Origin: Chthoniobacterales bacterium
GTDB lineage: Bacteria > Verrucomicrobiota > Verrucomicrobiia > Chthoniobacterales > JAATET01
Direction: 5' to 3'
DNA length: 55,955 nt
Assembly: GCA_036569045.1 (NCBI GenBank)
Contig: DATCRI010000019.1
Location: 1 to 55,955 of the forward strand
Of the stretch, positions 42,579 through 55,695 are shown in pieces (within the stretch, counting starts at the first letter, position 1; each line of letters opens with the position of its first letter). A program made the position numbers and the translations under genes. The notes below the pieces were generated by a model. It was not told where the DNA came from and made no database searches. It saw only the letters and a program-made list of their open reading frames with translations.

Positions 42579-42653
42579 GGCGCCTTCGTCTAGGGGTTAG
42601 GACACGGCCCTCTCAAGGCCGGTGCACGGGTTCGATTCCCGTAGGCGCTGCCA
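42579..42653 (+). tRNA. tRNA-Glu (anticodon CUC)
   Basis: A full cloverleaf can be folded: acceptor GGCGCCT with AGGCGCT, D-arm TCTAGGGGTTAGGA, anticodon stem CGGCC/GGCCG with loop CTCTCAA (anticodon CTC, decoding GAG), T-arm CGGGTTCGATTCCCG, discriminator G and an encoded CCA. G-T pairing at position 1-72 is slightly non-canonical. It marks the boundary between GC-rich chromosome and the AT-richer accessory segment, as expected for an integration site. Confidence 0.96.
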
Positions 42654-42750
42654 CTTTAAGTTCTTGATGTTCAAGGATTTGTCTCAGTGGAAATTTTTCA
42701 GAGATAAAGCCGTCCAACCCTCTGAAAAAGGGGCTTCTCTGTAAAATTTT

Positions 42751-43268: not shown

Positions 43269-43748
43269 CTAGTTTTCTGAGCTGTTTGGTTTTTGAAAAG
43301 TGTAATAGGCCCTCATCGTGAGTTGTGCCGCCTCATTATAGAGCTTTTCGAAGGCTTCTCGGTCCTTCTTTTGTATTTGTTCCAGCATGTTACCGAGTAA
43401 ATCGGCGATCGGGCGTGGTCCCTCGAATGCACCTAGGCCTTCGCGAAAAAGCTTTGATTTGATAAAATCATCTTTGGAGTAGGGGTGGCCAAAGCGACTA
43501 ACCGGAGTAGATTCATCTCCGGATCCAAGTAACCAAGCGTCAGAGACTCCCAGCGATAGCTGGATCCATTGCGCGAGCTTCGGGGAGAGGGCAAGTCGAT
43601 GACTTTCAATGGAGTGAATCGTTGGGAGGGATTTGTGAAGGTGCTTGGCGAACTCTTTCTGAGTCATTCCAAGTACTTCCCTTACGACCGCGAGGCGGTG
43701 TTTATTTTTCTTCGGTTTCAAAATTGTATACAGATTGTATGTTGACAT
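43269..43748 (-). CDS. XRE-family helix-turn-helix regulator, 159 aa
   Basis: An N-terminal helix-turn-helix domain (about residues 17-75: HRLAVVREVLGMTQKEFAKH, LHKSLPTIHSIESHRLALSP, KLAQWIQLSLGVSDAWLL) of the Cro/C1 type, then a short acidic and helical C-terminal region (IADLLGNMLEQIQKKDREAFEK). It is divergent from the winged-helix gene at 43828 with 79 bp between starts. Four matching half-sites lie over its own start codon and the shared promoter region, which strongly suggests auto-repression. An element-maintenance switch is plausible. Confidence 0.82.
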   Translation of the reverse strand: MSTYNLYTILKPKKNKHRLAVVREVLGMTQKEFAKHLHKSLPTIHSIESHRLALSPKLAQWIQLSLGVSDAWLLGSGDESTPVSRFGHPYSKDDFIKSKLFREGLGAFEGPRPIADLLGNMLEQIQKKDREAFEKLYNEAAQLTMRAYYTFQKPNSSEN

Positions 43749-43798
43749 GATCGGCGAATGAGCTTACATGGGCTTCCTGACATACAACTGTCATACAA
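43724..43798. promoter_or_regulatory. Four TTGTATRN half-sites in the divergent promoter region
   Basis: Two plus-strand copies, TTGTATAC (43724) and TTGTATGT (43735), and two minus-strand copies, read on plus as ACATACAA (43780) and TCATACAA (43791), are each offset by 11 bp, one helical turn. The pairs face each other across about 37 bp. The left pair lies within codons 3-9 of the XRE gene. A TTGACA at 43742 could be a -35 element for the rightward gene. This arrangement fits cooperative repressor binding. Confidence 0.65.
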
Positions 43799-43827: not shown

Positions 43828-44610
43828 ATGAGCACAAAGAAACAAATCTTGAAGGGAAAAACTATCGGCCAAGCACGCTTGCTTGGGTCCACGGATAAGA
43901 ACCAACCCATCCAAAACCCGACTACCAACGACGTGCCCGCGCCCACCACCAGTGGGGCGTTAAAAGAGAGTATCCTCGCCGCCCTCAAGGCAGCCGGGTC
44001 TTCCGGACTGACCTGCTCCGAACTCGCCGCTAAACTTGGTGTCGAGCTTAAAATCGTCGCCATATGGTTCTCGACAACCGGAGTGAAAATGCCCGAGATC
44101 AAAAAAATTGCGGCGGGACACTTTGCGTTCCTTCCTCCCCCATACATCTACGATGGCGAAGATCGTCGCCCCGATGTTGATTACGCTCTCGGTGTCGCCA
44201 TGAAAGCTGCTGAGGCAAAAGGCTGGGGTAAGCACGAATATGATTTCATTAAATACGCGAACATCGTGGAATTCGCTATCGACGACATTACGGCAAGTTC
44301 GCCCTACGGGATCAAGCCTCCCACTGTTGAGGTAGTGGAACCTATGCTTGACCTAATTGATTGGGACAACGACCTGACGCCGTATCCCGTCGTATGGCAC
44401 ATCTGGCAAGATGCAGTTGATGAGGCGAAAGGGCAACCCACTCGCGAGCAGGTTGTGGAGTCAAAGAAAAGGATGCTTATTGAGGCCTTGAAGCAGGACT
44501 TGCAGAAATTACCGATTGATCGCCTTTCTCAACTGTATGTCTCAGCCAATGACCATTACCGAGTGATTCGTATGAACCGAACGCCTCATTCCACCCAGTT
44601 TAGCTCTTAA
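43828..44610 (+). CDS. Winged-helix domain protein of unknown function, 260 aa
   Basis: A polar, Thr/Pro-rich N-terminus (about 45 residues) leads to a winged-helix-like domain: ESILAALKAAGSSGLTCSEL, AAKLGVELKIVAIWFSTTGV, KMPEIKKIAAGHFAFLPP. The remaining about 150 residues are helical (EAKGWGKHEYDFIKYANIVE, DAVDEAKGQPTREQVVESKK) without a recognised fold. The segment FSTTG-x-K is similar to FATTG-x-K in the protein at 55120-55695, so both may share one domain. Divergent from the XRE gene. Confidence 0.7.
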   Translation: MSTKKQILKGKTIGQARLLGSTDKNQPIQNPTTNDVPAPTTSGALKESILAALKAAGSSGLTCSELAAKLGVELKIVAIWFSTTGVKMPEIKKIAAGHFAFLPPPYIYDGEDRRPDVDYALGVAMKAAEAKGWGKHEYDFIKYANIVEFAIDDITASSPYGIKPPTVEVVEPMLDLIDWDNDLTPYPVVWHIWQDAVDEAKGQPTREQVVESKKRMLIEALKQDLQKLPIDRLSQLYVSANDHYRVIRMNRTPHSTQFSS

Positions 44611-44707: not shown

Positions 44708-45874
44708 ATGTCAATTCTGACGCACGATGGCATGCCAACGATGACTATGTCTGAGGCGATGGCATTTCTTACAAGTGATGGCAGGGAGCTGGCTAAGCCT
44801 GTTCCAGAAGTGGTTGCGGCGCCGCCATCAGAACCCATAATGGAGATTAGTTCGGAAAATCCAAATTCAATTAAAAAGTGGCATTCGTTTTCTCGGAAAC
44901 TAGCAGTTGACGTCAACGACAAAGCGCCGGATATCACCGCAGCCATTATTCTTCATCGTCTGCTTCTGTGGAAACGGCACGGTCGAAAAAGGTGGAATGC
45001 TGCCCTTAAAAATGGCGTGAGCTGCTACCGCAGTCTCGCTGAGCTTGAATCGGATTTACCGTACCTGTCCCGGTCAGGAATAGATAATGGGCTTAAACGC
45101 CTAGCCCAACACTTTGGTGATGATATCGATGTTCATCGTGAAGGTCGTCAGAAACTTACTTTCACGATCAGCGATAAAATCGAAAAGAAATACATGAGTG
45201 CAAGCCTGGGGTTCTTCGTCGAAGGCGACGCGTTGGAGCACGGCATTCTTGCCGCAATGGTCTTGAACATTCTGAGGCAAGATCGACTTGAGTATGAAGT
45301 TCGTCACGGGCAGGGTTCAGGTTGGGAGCTGGCGTTTAGGCTTAGTTCCAGTTCGTTGAGTAAAGTTCGATTGGTTCAGGAAGGAACGAAGCAGGTTGAG
45401 CATCCGCCTGTCATTCCTGCTAGCTCTCGAAGCATCTCACGTGCTCTCAGCTCTCTGGTAGCGGCAGGTGTAATCTGTCAAGCGGACAAGGCGGGGTACT
45501 ATGCCGAAGCGCATCCCATTGGCGAGAGTGATATAGCCCACGGTTTTTCTGAGGAGTTGGCCTCGGCACATGTTGAAAAGATCGCAGAATGCTTTCTGCG
45601 CTTCAAACAGCGTCAGGTGAGAAATTATGCAATTACGCCGGCTGACCTTAAAGCGTTCAGGAAATGCCTGCCTCAGCTTCGCATGTTAGGGGTCGAAGCC
45701 GAATGGTACATGTTTTATGCCATTGATGGACAGTCGCCAAAGAAGTTCAATTCAGCGTACTTGTATCAGGACACTACTGTCGCGCGAGTGTACCAAGGAC
45801 TGGCCCGAAATGGGCACCGCTTTCCAACGCGACAAGAGTTGTCACCCAATATGACAAAAGTGGACATAGAGTGA
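44708..45874 (+). CDS. Putative replication initiator protein, 388 aa
   Basis: No single family can be named with certainty. The protein contains two regions with winged-helix character (about 110-185: YRSLAELESDLPYLSRSGID, LKRLAQHFGDDIDVHREGRQ; and about 210-270: SSLSKVRLVQE, SRSISRALSSLVAAGVICQAD) and a helical C-terminus. Its last codons run directly into four 20-bp repeats with an AT-rich flank, as in iteron-controlled plasmids, where the initiator gene lies beside its own iterons. The role is therefore inferred mainly from the DNA structure. A transcription regulator is the alternative. Confidence 0.5.
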   Translation: MSILTHDGMPTMTMSEAMAFLTSDGRELAKPVPEVVAAPPSEPIMEISSENPNSIKKWHSFSRKLAVDVNDKAPDITAAIILHRLLLWKRHGRKRWNAALKNGVSCYRSLAELESDLPYLSRSGIDNGLKRLAQHFGDDIDVHREGRQKLTFTISDKIEKKYMSASLGFFVEGDALEHGILAAMVLNILRQDRLEYEVRHGQGSGWELAFRLSSSSLSKVRLVQEGTKQVEHPPVIPASSRSISRALSSLVAAGVICQADKAGYYAEAHPIGESDIAHGFSEELASAHVEKIAECFLRFKQRQVRNYAITPADLKAFRKCLPQLRMLGVEAEWYMFYAIDGQSPKKFNSAYLYQDTTVARVYQGLARNGHRFPTRQELSPNMTKVDIE

Positions 45875-45930
45875 CAAAATTAGATGCACTGTGACAAAAG
45901 CGGACGCGGAACAGACAAAAGTGGATGATT
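45851..45930 (+). repeat. Four iteron-like repeats with core GACAAAA
   Basis: The core GACAAAA occurs at 45853, 45873, 45893 and 45914, giving a 20, 20 and 21 bp period, about two helical turns. Three copies extend to TGACAAAAnnnGGA or near variants. The first copy encodes the last residues of the initiator gene. The spacing and the adjacent AT-rich tract (TTTTTAAATAATTATTAAAG, 45945-45964) are typical of an iteron origin. Confidence 0.7.
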
Positions 45931-45995
45931 TACTCTAGGTAAATGTTTTTAAATAATTATTAAAGGTTTCTGATAAAGGGCTTTCAAATATATAG

Positions 45996-46016
45996 ATACG
46001 CGACTTCGTCGCGTAT
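45996..46016. repeat. Perfect 9-bp hairpin next to the iteron region
   Basis: ATACGCGAC and GTCGCGTAT are perfectly complementary around a TTC triloop. The right arm overlaps the first of two direct CGTATGAACT repeats. It could be a replication or regulatory structure; no U-run follows, so termination is less likely. Confidence 0.6.
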
Positions 46017-46204
46017 GAACTACGTATGAACTTAAACTGTTAATCTTATCATTGTCGCACATCTGATCAGATTCGCTGGTGAGATGTACGATGGAGTTCT
46101 CACTTGGTTCCAGCGGCTCGGCGCCATACCTGAGTCTTCTTGTAACGTCGCGATGATTTCGGTGAGCGTTGTGCCTCCGATCTTGGTGCTTGGTGGGTAG
46201 CTTC

Positions 46205-49647: not shown

Positions 49648-50415
49648 TCAGTTCTTCCCGTGGAGGCGAAACCCGAACTTGGAATCGAACAACCCTTGAA
49701 GCGCAGTCGTGCGTTCAGGAAGAAGAGAAAGATTTCCTTTCAGGCCTTCAGTAAACGCATTGAACAAACTCCAGGCCGTACGCGGCGCGAAGTCAGAATG
49801 ACGCGGTTCCCGCCATTCCCGAAGCACCTCCGGGATGTGACGGTTGGTAATGGCTCCCACATCAGCGGCCCTGATCACGATATCGTGGGCCTTTGCATCG
49901 GTCACGCTGGTTGCGCCATAGGCGGCGATGCGTTGGTCCTGGGTATGCCACTGCTCCACGATCCTGCTCACTGCCGTGTGGGCAAGTGTGGGAAGATCGC
50001 GGAGAATGAACCTCGTGTGCCGACGTGCCAGTTTGACCTCGCCCGAGAAGCTCAAGTTGTCGCAGACGAACACTTGGACCCCAGCGACGATGCCGGCAGG
50101 GAAGGTCTTGTCGTGCGAGTTTCTCAAGCCCAGCACCCACGAGTAATCGTTGGCATTGTGGCCATGCCGGACTTCGAGAAGCCCGAAGTAGCGCTGACCA
50201 TCGGCGGTGAGGCTGTGGGCTTCGCCGAGCACTTCGATGTCGTTTGCCTTCAGGGTGCGCTCGATTTGCGCGAGCACCTTCGTGTGGGCAATTGGCATCC
50301 AGGTATGTGTCGGCTGAGGAGTTGGCACCGAGGCCAATTCCCGACGGCTGACGGCTGCAGCGCCGCAGTGCAGGATGAGGTTGCAGCGGCGAGGGGAGGA
50401 AGGGGCGATGTTCAT
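49648..50415 (-). CDS. DUF932-domain protein
   Basis: A 255-aa protein in the phage/plasmid-like DUF932 family: WMPIAHTKVLAQIERTLKAN, ADGQRYFGLLEVRHG, SWVLGLRNSHDKTFPAGIVA, GVQVFVCDNLSFSGEV and HTRFILRDLPTLAHTAV. The family is found on plasmids, phages and islands, usually near DNA-processing genes; function unknown. The start overlaps the stop of the 39-aa membrane peptide (ATGA). The last gene of the minus-strand block. Start at 50415 (MNIAPSSPRRC). Confidence 0.85.
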   Translation of the reverse strand: MNIAPSSPRRCNLILHCGAAAVSRRELASVPTPQPTHTWMPIAHTKVLAQIERTLKANDIEVLGEAHSLTADGQRYFGLLEVRHGHNANDYSWVLGLRNSHDKTFPAGIVAGVQVFVCDNLSFSGEVKLARRHTRFILRDLPTLAHTAVSRIVEQWHTQDQRIAAYGATSVTDAKAHDIVIRAADVGAITNRHIPEVLREWREPRHSDFAPRTAWSLFNAFTEGLKGNLSLLPERTTALQGLFDSKFGFRLHGKN

Positions 50416-50531
50416 GATTTCTTGTGATGAGTGGAGCCCAGGCAACGCCGGGCGATGTTGACGGCCACCAGGCTGATACTGGTTTGGATCAGCCAGATGA
50501 CGGAGGTGAGGACGAGTTTGGGGTTGGTCAT
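50412..50531 (-). CDS. Small membrane peptide, 39 aa
   Basis: Reads MTNPKLVLTSVIWLIQTSIS then LVAVNIARRCLGSTHHKKS: one hydrophobic span and a basic tail. It sits 32 bp after the WGR-ligase stop and overlaps the DUF932 start by 4 bp, which supports real translation. A membrane peptide in such a place may be a small toxin-like or regulatory partner, but this is speculation. Confidence 0.5.
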   Translation of the reverse strand: MTNPKLVLTSVIWLIQTSISLVAVNIARRCLGSTHHKKS

Positions 50532-50563
50532 GTGGTTTTGGTTTTTGGGTTGAGGACCTGACT

Positions 50564-51616
50564 TCAGGCCGCTTTTTTGTATTTGAGCTGAGAGACGAGG
50601 CACTCGGCTTGTTCGATGTCATCCCGGAGACCGAGATAAACGGGTTGGTAGAGGCTCCCGCTCTCGGGAATGGCGTAGAGGTAGCGCACTTCGGCCACCT
50701 GCCCGACTTCAGGCAGAGGATGGTTGGGTGGGATCGTCACGTTGCCAGCTGGCACCAACTTGGTATCATCCCAGAGAGAGATCGCCGCACTGCGCCTGGT
50801 ATTGATCGCCGAAACGATCACGGACGCCGTGGTCACGAACTTGAACTTCAGCTGATTTCCGCCCGAGGCCGGACGGCCAGCGGAGTAGGAGGCAAGTTCA
50901 CGCTTGAAGACGACGCCCTCGATGCCCTGTTCCCGGTAGCGATCGAACGCGAAGCGCTTTTCCTGCTCGCCCCAGAAGGTGCACACCTGCCGGATCGAGC
51001 CAACGGGTTCGTCGCCAAGCAACGTCATTAATGCGATGAGACGCTGCCGGTAGGGCTCATTTCGCAAATCTTCTTCGTCGCATTCAAGGAGGTCGAAAGC
51101 GCTGAACACGTCTCCGACCGCCTCGCCGTCGATGAGGAAGTCTCCCTCGAAGAGGAGTGCGTCGTCCGGGATGGACTCAGGGATGCCACACTCGATTCCT
51201 CGGCGATTGATCCCGGTGACGGACTGCCCCATCTTCCGAATGAGTAGTCGTCGTCCATCGATCTTGGGCTGAAGGACGAACGAGTCGTCTGTCAGTAGCT
51301 GAGGAAGCTCGACCTCCTCAACCGGGTTTAGCAGTTGAGGGAGGACGCCAGTAAACTCCTGGCTGCCTCCCGAGTAGGAAGTCGCGTCCGCGCCGGGAGT
51401 GTATCCCTTGGCGAGTTTCTCCCGAACGAGCCGGTCATGGATTTTCAGAGCCTGTTCGTATGAGACTGGATATTGAGTCTTGCTGCCGGTCGAGAGAGTC
51501 GCTCCCCGACGCCCATAGGCGAAGTTGACGACCCATCCGGTGGAGCGTTCTTCGAGCGCGATCTGATAGACCTTATCGGAAGCGCCCTCGCGGTAATACA
51601 GGGTGGTAGGGGACAT
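50564..51616 (-). CDS. WGR-domain/ATP-dependent DNA ligase fusion protein
   Basis: A 350-aa protein. Residues 1-75 form a WGR-type domain (LYYREGASDKVYQIALEERS, VNFAYGRRGATLSTGSKT). The rest is a nucleotidyltransferase of the ATP-dependent DNA ligase type: motif I LQPKIDGRRLL (adenylated Lys about 118), motif III region FLIDGEAVGDVFSAFDLLE, motif IV GIEGVVFKRE, motif V QLKFKF, and a C-terminal OB-like domain (about 265-345). WGR domains bind DNA breaks in PARPs, so the fusion suggests strand-break recognition followed by sealing. Activity is not proven; the compact ligase lacks the extra domains of LigD or NAD-dependent LigA. Confidence 0.85.
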   Translation of the reverse strand: MSPTTLYYREGASDKVYQIALEERSTGWVVNFAYGRRGATLSTGSKTQYPVSYEQALKIHDRLVREKLAKGYTPGADATSYSGGSQEFTGVLPQLLNPVEEVELPQLLTDDSFVLQPKIDGRRLLIRKMGQSVTGINRRGIECGIPESIPDDALLFEGDFLIDGEAVGDVFSAFDLLECDEEDLRNEPYRQRLIALMTLLGDEPVGSIRQVCTFWGEQEKRFAFDRYREQGIEGVVFKRELASYSAGRPASGGNQLKFKFVTTASVIVSAINTRRSAAISLWDDTKLVPAGNVTIPPNHPLPEVGQVAEVRYLYAIPESGSLYQPVYLGLRDDIEQAECLVSQLKYKKAA

Positions 51617-53877: not shown

Positions 53878-54681
53878 TTACGCGCCTGAGTTCATCGAAT
53901 TGTTGATGCAATAGAGGATCAATTGTGCCAGCGGCACCGGCAGATAAAGGCGGACCGCCTCGAGAGTGCGGTTTTCGCCGTATCCCTTTCGACTGGGATA
54001 ATCGGGGTCGACCAAAACCGTATCGATCCGCAAAAGCTTGAAGGGATAGTTTGAAAGGGAGGATCCTGACCACCGCCTCCAATCCGGTCGATCGCTTAGA
54101 ATGTAGTAAAAGACCTGGTGGTCGATGAAGAGTTTCTTCATGGCTTTGTTCCGATAGCTGACGAAATTGTAAGTTCTCCAGCCTTGATCTCCTGTATATC
54201 GTGGTGGGAATTGTCCGGGCTTTGGCGCTTCTTGGACCAATTGAATGCACACCACCTGGTTCGCTTGATCCACAACGATGTTGATTTGATTGTAGCCGTC
54301 CGCGAACAATCCTTTGTAGGTGTAATAGAAAAATGACTCCTTCGGAAATCCCGGGCATCCGAGCATGTTCCGTGATGGGAGGTTACCAGTCAGTCCCAAG
54401 GTTTTGACGGCTTCCTTGATCGGCATCAGGTAAGTGACGCCTTTGTAGATTTCGATACTGCTGTCGGCGTCCAGATTGGCACCTGCGTTAACCAATGGAT
54501 CAAGTAAACGAACGAGATCGGTCATGGTCTCCGTTCCTCCCTGCAGCTTCGTGTTCCACTTGGGGCCGAGCTTGATACCAGGTGTTGCGGCTGATGGAGG
54601 CTGGGGAGGAGGAACTTGAGCAAATACGTTTTCGATACAGAGGAAAACGACTGACGCGGCAACGCACAAACTCCTGATCAT
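53878..54681 (-). CDS. Exported protein of unknown function, 267 aa
   Basis: Signal peptide SLCVAASVVFLCIENVFAQV, then a short Pro-rich linker and a mixed alpha/beta domain: YLMPIKEAVKTLGLTGNLPS, FPKESFFYYTYKGLFADGYN, QINIVVDQANQVVCIQLVQE and LLRIDTVLVDPDYPSRKGYG. No family that I recognise. It is the first gene of a three-gene unit and divergent from the small XRE gene, 55 bp apart. Confidence 0.7.
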   Translation of the reverse strand: MIRSLCVAASVVFLCIENVFAQVPPPQPPSAATPGIKLGPKWNTKLQGGTETMTDLVRLLDPLVNAGANLDADSSIEIYKGVTYLMPIKEAVKTLGLTGNLPSRNMLGCPGFPKESFFYYTYKGLFADGYNQINIVVDQANQVVCIQLVQEAPKPGQFPPRYTGDQGWRTYNFVSYRNKAMKKLFIDHQVFYYILSDRPDWRRWSGSSLSNYPFKLLRIDTVLVDPDYPSRKGYGENRTLEAVRLYLPVPLAQLILYCINNSMNSGA

Positions 54682-55119: not shown

Positions 55120-55695
55120 TCAGTGAGCGGCTGCAAATTCTGGCTGAACCGTTGCTACAAGTGGTACCGCGGATGCAGATGGAGCGACCTCCGTTACCGG
55201 CTCAATAGCTGGTTCTGCTGCAAGGGTGGGGGACTCGACTGTCGGTTCGGAAGCGATTACAGGGATGATGGGTTCATTGGTAGTGCCCAACGCCCAAACG
55301 CCGCGACCGACTTTCACAAATCCCTTCTTCTTTCCGGTCGTGGCGAAGAAAACATGCAGGCTGGCAGGCTTTGCTCCGGTAAGCTTGGCGATCTCGGGAA
55401 CCGACAATCCTTCCGGTTTGTCCTTCAAAGCTACAGCAACTCGCTCAGCCAATGAACCTGATTGCTTCTCAGGAGATGCTTGTGATGATTTTGCGGCGCG
55501 CGTTGTCTTGGAAGCTGTAGGTGCTTTGACTTTTGGCGCAGGAGAGGGGGCAGTTTTCTGCGATTGTGAATCGGCACTAGCCAAGCGGGTAATCGATGCG
55601 TCGATCGTAGCGATCTCTGCTAGAAGAGTTTCCTTTTTCTCAACGAGAGTGAGGAGTTCGCGGAGAATTTCGGGTGTCAGGTCGGAATAAGACAT
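55120..55695 (-). CDS. Winged-helix/coiled-coil DNA-binding-like protein, 191 aa
   Basis: N-terminal coiled-coil (SDLTPEILRELLTLVEKKET, LLAEIATIDASITRLASADS), a basic Lys/Pro/Ala/Ser-rich linker, a winged-helix-like core (LAERVAVALKDKPEGLSVPE, IAKLTGAKPASLHVFFATTG, KKKGFVKVGRGVWALG) and a Pro/Ala/Glu-rich tail. The core resembles that of the protein at 43828-44610 (TTG and K in the same place). The layout recalls nucleoid-associated proteins, but no family is assigned. The gene ends in a strong terminator. Confidence 0.7.
   Translation of the reverse strand: MSYSDLTPEILRELLTLVEKKETLLAEIATIDASITRLASADSQSQKTAPSPAPKVKAPTASKTTRAAKSSQASPEKQSGSLAERVAVALKDKPEGLSVPEIAKLTGAKPASLHVFFATTGKKKGFVKVGRGVWALGTTNEPIIPVIASEPTVESPTLAAEPAIEPVTEVAPSASAVPLVATVQPEFAAAH

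What the first reader, a model, noticed from the sequence alone, without database searches (positions are those of the whole stretch)
44708..46032. Iteron replicon-like unit inside a tRNA-adjacent island
A putative initiator gene ends inside four GACAAAA repeats spaced 20, 20 and 21 bp. These are followed by an AT-rich tract, a perfect 9-bp hairpin and a tandem 10-bp repeat. The spacing is hard to get by chance and matches the layout of iteron plasmid origins. The initiator does not resemble any family I know, so this may be an undescribed replicon type that now lives in the chromosome or as an integrative element.
Basis: partly seen in the sequence, partly recalled or inferred. Interest (0 to 1): 0.65.

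Follow-up and report, generated by a model that had tools for sequence, protein, structure and literature searches.

The report
Island replicon with initiator-embedded iteron origin
A mobile DNA island inserted at a tRNA gene of a Verrucomicrobiota bacterium carries its own probable replication start: an initiator gene whose last codons run into four evenly spaced copies of the site the protein should bind, and distant relatives in other islands keep such repeats inside the gene itself.

Summary
In detail: a 388-aa ORF (44708-45874) ends inside GACAAAA repeats spaced 20, 20 and 21 bp. These are followed by the most AT-rich 75 bp of the window, a 9-bp hairpin and a tandem 10-bp repeat. None of 2000 shuffles gives such an array. 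The stop codon is the TGA of the second repeat. The protein has no Pfam or NCBIfam match, but its only PHROG matches, weak ones, are replication initiators, and divergent relatives match those families strongly. Six of eight related elements carry 3-5 iteron-like repeats (20-21 bp) inside the coding sequence, directly after two predicted winged helices. In one, a 20-bp step shifts the frame, so DNA rather than peptide is conserved. A 53-bp copy of the tRNA-Glu 3' end with a tyrosine integrase lies on another contig of the genome, probably the island's other end. A relative is a complete 47-kb island with exact 43-bp tRNA-Met repeats. Best reading: rep plus oriV of an integrative element, with phage O / RepA_N-like logic, in an undescribed initiator family; the window copy is a derived form with the origin at the 3' end of rep. 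Activity is untested.

The parts
42579..42653 (+). tRNA-Glu (CTC), integration target; att core 42603-42655
   Evidence: 53-bp 98% copy on contig C32:8395-8447 beside a tyrosine integrase
43269..43748 (-). XRE/HTH_3-like regulator, divergent to the rep operon
   Evidence: HTH_3 4e-4, below the curated cut-off
43723..43798 (.). operator-like repeats (ATTGTAT x2, CATACAA x2, inverted) between the regulator and the rep operon
   Evidence: all three exact TTGTATG copies of the window lie here
43828..44610 (+). 260-aa ORF upstream of rep, weak HTH, possible operon partner
   Evidence: no family at cut-off
44708..45874 (+). putative replication initiator (Rep), 388 aa
44879..45511 (+). coding region of two tandem predicted winged-helix domains
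   Evidence: alignments, model mean pLDDT 60, winged-helix matches
45831..45843 (.). degenerate copy/palindrome GACAAGAGTTGTC, possible fifth half-site
45852..45925 (+). four iterons (T)GACAAAA, three of them followed by G(T/C)GGA; spacing 20, 20, 21; the TGA of the second is the rep stop codon
45924..45999 (.). AT-rich tract, 23% GC, candidate duplex-unwinding element
45996..46016 (.). perfect 9-bp hairpin; terminator-like for the minus strand
46012..46032 (+). two copies of CGTATGAACT, 11 bp apart
49648..50622 (-). DUF932 protein, island gene
   Evidence: 8.9e-10
50564..51616 (-). ATP-dependent DNA ligase with WGR domain, island gene also near Rep in L033 and L034
51765..52352 (-). 195-aa protein of the same accessory set (L033, L034, L038)
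53878..54681 (-). 267-aa protein also next to rep in L033

Best explanation
The unit is the rep gene and replication origin (oriV) of an integrative element inserted at tRNA-Glu. Rep binds the iterons through one or both winged-helix domains (inferred). The bound array opens the adjacent AT-rich tract, and a helicase is recruited (inferred). The element would use this after excision by its tyrosine integrase, to replicate as a circle. Expression is probably held by the divergent XRE regulator acting on the repeats at 43723-43798 (inferred). Shown here: the sequence anatomy, homology of the initiator to phage-type initiators through divergent relatives, recurrence of iteron arrays at this gene in other elements, and the att copy with integrase. 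Not shown: DNA binding, excision, replication.
For: Array absent from 2000 shuffles, AT tract tied lowest of the window. PHROG matches only to replication initiators for the window protein; L038, L039, L035 match phrog_11233/6493 (replication initiation, DnaD-like loader) at 1e-20 to 1e-23, and the profile search and alignment join them to the window protein. Iteron arrays directly after the second winged helix in L005, L006, L033, L036/L037, L038, L039, none reached in 40 shuffles each; in L005 spacing 21/20/21 shifts the frame so that two copies read CEQTAK and two VSKLP. 53-bp tRNA-Glu 3'-end copy on C32 with a 510-aa Phage_integrase-like gene 16 bp away. Relative L034 is a complete 47-kb island with exact 43-bp tRNA-Met repeats and integrase, AAA_25 helicase, Rep, ligase and DnaN-like genes. 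Patchy distribution: 4 of 213 genomes of the order, none in three other genomes of the genus.
Against: No direct functional evidence. The window Rep carries about 110 residues between the second winged helix and the array, and its C-terminal part is not detectably homologous to the relatives' C-terminal domain (hhalign probability 0.5%), so helicase recruitment is unsupported. No helicase gene or DnaA box was recognised in the window part of the island. C19 and C32 are separate contigs, and the same-genus genomes do not confirm that their flanks are neighbours. L034 has no clear array and L035 only an irregular one.
Confidence: 0.77

Rival explanations
1. The unit is the replication module of a decayed prophage: an O/DnaD-type phage initiator with its in-gene origin left in an island, no longer or only occasionally used.
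For: Closest profiles are phage initiators; divergent XRE switch; one relative, L057, lies in a prophage-like contig with terminase- and portal-like genes and a DnaB helicase; phage SpT152 shows the same in-gene array.
Against: No phage structural gene was recognised in the 13 kb of island in the window or, by eye, in the complete G699 island, which carries defence-like and replication genes. Direct searches of phage and viral collections with the window protein found nothing.
Confidence: 0.15
2. An inactive remnant of such a replicon: rep is a truncated or rearranged copy and the array only marks a former origin.
For: The ORF is 388 aa against 599-729 aa in most relatives, with its stop inside the array; unlike sister and outgroup, the array is at the 3' end; long branch of the window protein (1.48).
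Against: ORF open and its winged-helix region aligned over its whole length with conserved residues; the repeats are nearly identical although three of four are not coding; AT tract intact.
Confidence: 0.2
3. The repeats are binding sites for transcriptional autoregulation or partition (centromere-like), not an origin.
For: Winged-helix proteins resemble MarR-type regulators; a palindromic half-site precedes the array.
Against: The array is at the end of or inside the gene, not at its promoter, followed by an AT-rich tract; families matched are replication initiators; no exact iteron copy lies upstream of rep.
Confidence: 0.06

Closest known systems
Lambdoid phage O protein and ori-lambda
   Same: Initiator with 4 or more iterons of about 20 bp followed by an AT-rich tract, array lying inside the initiator gene as in the window's relatives (lambda: PMC7466680).
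   Different: No Pfam match to the O family; two predicted winged helices; in the window the array is at the 3' end and no lambda P-like loader was recognised.
RepA_N plasmid initiators (pSK41)
   Same: Ori of four Rep boxes centrally within rep, ori-encoded residues acting as linker (PMC5703833); structures that I take from memory to be RepA_N N-terminal domains (4pql, 4pt7, 4pta, 5kbj) are among the best structural matches (Z 6.5-7.4).
   Different: No profile match to RepA_N; the Z values are in the range of common winged-helix matches; antisense control was not looked for.
SGI1 (Salmonella genomic island 1) rep-oriV
   Same: Integrative island with an iteron oriV immediately downstream of rep, four repeats and AT-rich DNA, replicating after excision (PMC7433901).
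   Different: SGI1 Rep has a RepA_C domain and 17-bp GC-rich repeats with a DnaA box; SGI1 inserts at trmE; no relation in sequence seen.
SPP1-like and Staphylococcus phage DnaD-like initiators
   Same: Homology to divergent relatives (L035 vs phages, E down to 2e-10; phrog_6493), in-gene array in SpT152, genes next to helicase loader and DnaB-like helicase.
   Different: Those phage proteins are about 250-280 aa; the window protein itself gives no direct hit to them.

Membership tests
Iteron-type replicon (rep plus oriV) | 3 or more direct repeats about 20-22 bp apart next to the initiator gene | tested here: met
   4 copies, 20/20/21; 0 of 2000 shuffles
Iteron-type replicon (rep plus oriV) | adjacent AT-rich unwinding region | tested here: met
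   23% GC, tied lowest 75 bp of the window
Iteron-type replicon (rep plus oriV) | initiator with winged-helix DNA-binding domains | tested here: inconclusive
   model of mean pLDDT 60 with two winged-helix patterns; matches to winged-helix chains Z 6-8
Iteron-type replicon (rep plus oriV) | initiator binds the repeats and supports replication | not testable with these tools
   needs bench work
Rep_3 / TrfA / RepA_C plasmid initiators | profile match of the initiator | tested here: not met
   no Pfam or NCBIfam match
RepA_N initiators | RepA_N domain by sequence profile | tested here: not met
   no Pfam match for the window protein or six relatives
RepA_N initiators | RepA_N-like N-terminal winged-helix fold | tested here: inconclusive
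   4pql 7.4, 4pt7 7.2, 5kbj 6.9, 4pta 6.5, tied with MarR-like chains
Lambda O-type initiators | origin iterons inside the initiator coding sequence | tested here: inconclusive
   met in 6 relatives; in the window only the first iteron is coding
Lambda O-type initiators | profile match to the O family or an O-like PHROG | tested here: inconclusive
   window: other initiator PHROGs only, E 0.0016 at best; L034 phrog_678 1.2e-9
tRNA-targeted integrative element | direct repeat of the tRNA 3' end with an integrase next to it | tested here: met
   53 bp, 98%, integrase beside it, but on a second contig
Self-transmissible ICE | type IV coupling protein | tested here: not met
   no PF02534 match in the genome assembly

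The most novel reading that the evidence does not exclude
An undescribed replicon family of Verrucomicrobiota integrative islands, whose initiators have two winged helices and carry their own origin inside the reading frame, and in which one lineage (the window) has moved the origin to the end of the gene so that an iteron supplies the stop codon.
Probability: 0.5. Interest if true: 0.6.

Novelty: new variant of a known kind. Interest (0 to 1): 0.47.

Why it matters
Mobile elements and plasmids of Verrucomicrobiota are little described (general knowledge). A recognisable initiator with a predictable origin would give a handle for finding their replicating elements and for building vectors for them. 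The family also shows the origin's position shifting relative to the initiator gene (inside it, or at its stop codon), which bears on how initiator-origin pairs co-evolve.

Tried and rejected
Chance repeats: rejected by shuffles. Unrelated protein: rejected by initiator-only matches. Close relatives of the window protein in plasmids, phages and viral contigs: none. Peptide repeat rather than DNA repeat: rejected for L005 by the frame shift. Homology of the C-terminal part to the relatives' C-terminal domain: not established. Conjugative element: no coupling protein found. Full-length structure model: too poor (pLDDT 43), so only the winged-helix part was searched; Foldseek itself gave no match at E 0.001. 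Confirming that C32's flank adjoins tRNA-Glu in same-genus genomes: failed, the gene order differs. Searches of viral contigs with divergent relatives found nothing. My search for GACAAAANNNGGA used a wrong spacing and says nothing.

Full report
Observation. The 388-aa ORF 44708-45874 and the repeats are present as described. GACAAAA begins at 45853, 45873, 45893 and 45914. In a test for chains of an exact 7-mer spaced 18-24 bp, this is the only four-copy chain in the 56-kb window. None of 2000 dinucleotide shuffles of the surrounding 2 kb exceeded two copies, and 60 shuffles of the whole window never exceeded three. The first copy is coding; the second supplies the TGA stop codon (sequence). 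The 75 bp that follow are 23% GC, tied for the lowest in the window. The hairpin (45996-46016) folds with z -3.0. It looks like a terminator for minus-strand transcripts, so it may only insulate the origin.

Protein. Neither Pfam (at its cut-offs) nor NCBIfam knows it. PHROGs gives three weak matches, all 'replication initiation protein' (E 0.0016, 0.0099, 0.1). No close relative is found in plasmids, phages or viral contigs. In genomes it is rare: 4 of 213 of the order, itself included, and not in three other genomes of the genus. Two of the relatives are labelled uncultured Spartobacteria, so the host is in Verrucomicrobiota (inference). A profile of the first four members finds more in the class, and those divergent members match phage initiator families strongly: L039 phrog_11233 1e-23, L035 phrog_6493 (DnaD-like loader) 2e-22, L034 O-like phrog_678 1e-9. 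L035 also hits phage initiators directly (E down to 2e-10). The window protein is thus tied to phage-type initiators through intermediates, not directly.

Structure. A shallow alignment (three sequences) gives a modest model of residues 58-268 (mean pLDDT 60) in which a helix, helix, recognition helix and two-strand order is seen twice. VIA-align lists winged-helix chains, among them 4pql, 4pt7, 4pta and 5kbj, titled as initiator or Rep-DNA structures (RepA_N proteins by my own knowledge), at Z 6.5-7.4, tied with MarR-like proteins. Foldseek alone gave nothing significant. This supports winged helices, not a particular family.

Arrays in relatives. In L005, L006, L033, L036/L037, L038 and L039 an array of 3-5 copies, 20-21 bp apart, sits in the reading frame directly after the second winged helix; in each case 0 of 40 shuffles reach it. 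Some share a CAAAA core with the window (L038 GACAAAACCGGA; window GACAAAAGTGGA). In L005 the steps are 21, 20 and 21 bp, so the frame moves at the second step and the same DNA repeat is read as CEQTAK twice and VSKLP twice: the DNA is what is kept. L035 has an irregular array after its stop codon, and L034 none that is clear. On the tree the window protein lies inside a group whose sister and outgroup members have in-gene arrays, so its 3'-end position is probably the derived state (inference from nine sequences). A Staphylococcus phage initiator gene, in SpT152, also holds four repeats 22/22/23 bp apart.

Island. GC falls from about 0.64 to 0.43-0.50 beyond tRNA-Glu. The genome holds one 53-bp, 98% copy of the tRNA 3' end, on contig C32, and a 510-aa integrase gene begins 16 bp from it (Phage_integrase 5e-5, slightly under the curated cut-off). 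The sequence on the integrase side is also lower in GC than that beyond the copy. I take C19 and C32 as the two ends of one island; the contigs are not joined and same-genus gene order does not help. The best parallel is L034, in a single-contig genome: integrase beside tRNA-Met, an exact 43-bp copy 47 kb away, and between them an AAA_25 helicase, Rep, WGR ligase and DnaN-like protein. The window island shares the ligase, a 195-aa protein and a 267-aa protein with L033, and the first two with L034. No coupling protein was found in the genome, so self-conjugation is unlikely.

Control. An XRE-like gene (43269-43748, minus) faces the P0002-rep operon, and four copies of a TTGTAT site in two inverted pairs lie between them. 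This looks like a phage- or SaPI-like switch (inference).

Comparison. In lambdoid phages the origin (iterons plus AT tract) lies in the middle of O (PMC7466680). In pSK41 (RepA_N) four Rep boxes lie within rep and the encoded part is a linker (PMC5703833). SGI1 is an integrative island whose iteron oriV lies just downstream of rep and works after excision (PMC7433901). The window unit works like these by layout. It is not a member of RepA_N, Rep_3 or RepA_C by profile.

Limits. Nothing here shows binding, excision or replication. The C-terminal part of the window protein is unassigned, and no helicase or DnaA box was seen in the visible part of the island.

Noticed in passing
L036:1-1500 and L037:7500-9115 (G396 C70, C71): Two contigs of one genome continue the same rep gene that ends at the border of a third (C44), with 434- and 440-aa versions: probably two related elements in one genome, or an assembly fork at a repeated element.
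   Followed up: partly
L058 (G368:C76, 7349 bp): Small contig with a TrwC-type relaxase, a ParA-like gene and a related 302-aa winged-helix Rep: probably a mobilizable plasmid or its fragment.
   Followed up: partly
L034, L049, L050 (G699, 1762.5-1809.6 kb): Complete 47-kb tRNA-Met island whose second half holds 1312-, 949- and 1700-aa genes that look like a defence (DISARM-like) cluster; not scanned against PADLOC.
   Followed up: no
L033:2-643 and L049:578-2107: Island-borne DnaN-like sliding clamp genes near Rep, ligase and PD-(D/E)XK nuclease: a portable replication/repair set.
   Followed up: partly
45831-45843: Palindrome GACAAGAGTTGTC just before the array, made of iteron half-sites; in some iteron plasmids such half-site palindromes serve autoregulation (own knowledge).
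   Followed up: no
43828-44610 and 55120-55695: Two island proteins share a similar small HTH region (SGLTCSELAAKLG / EGLSVPEIAKLTG), noted by eye only.
   Followed up: no
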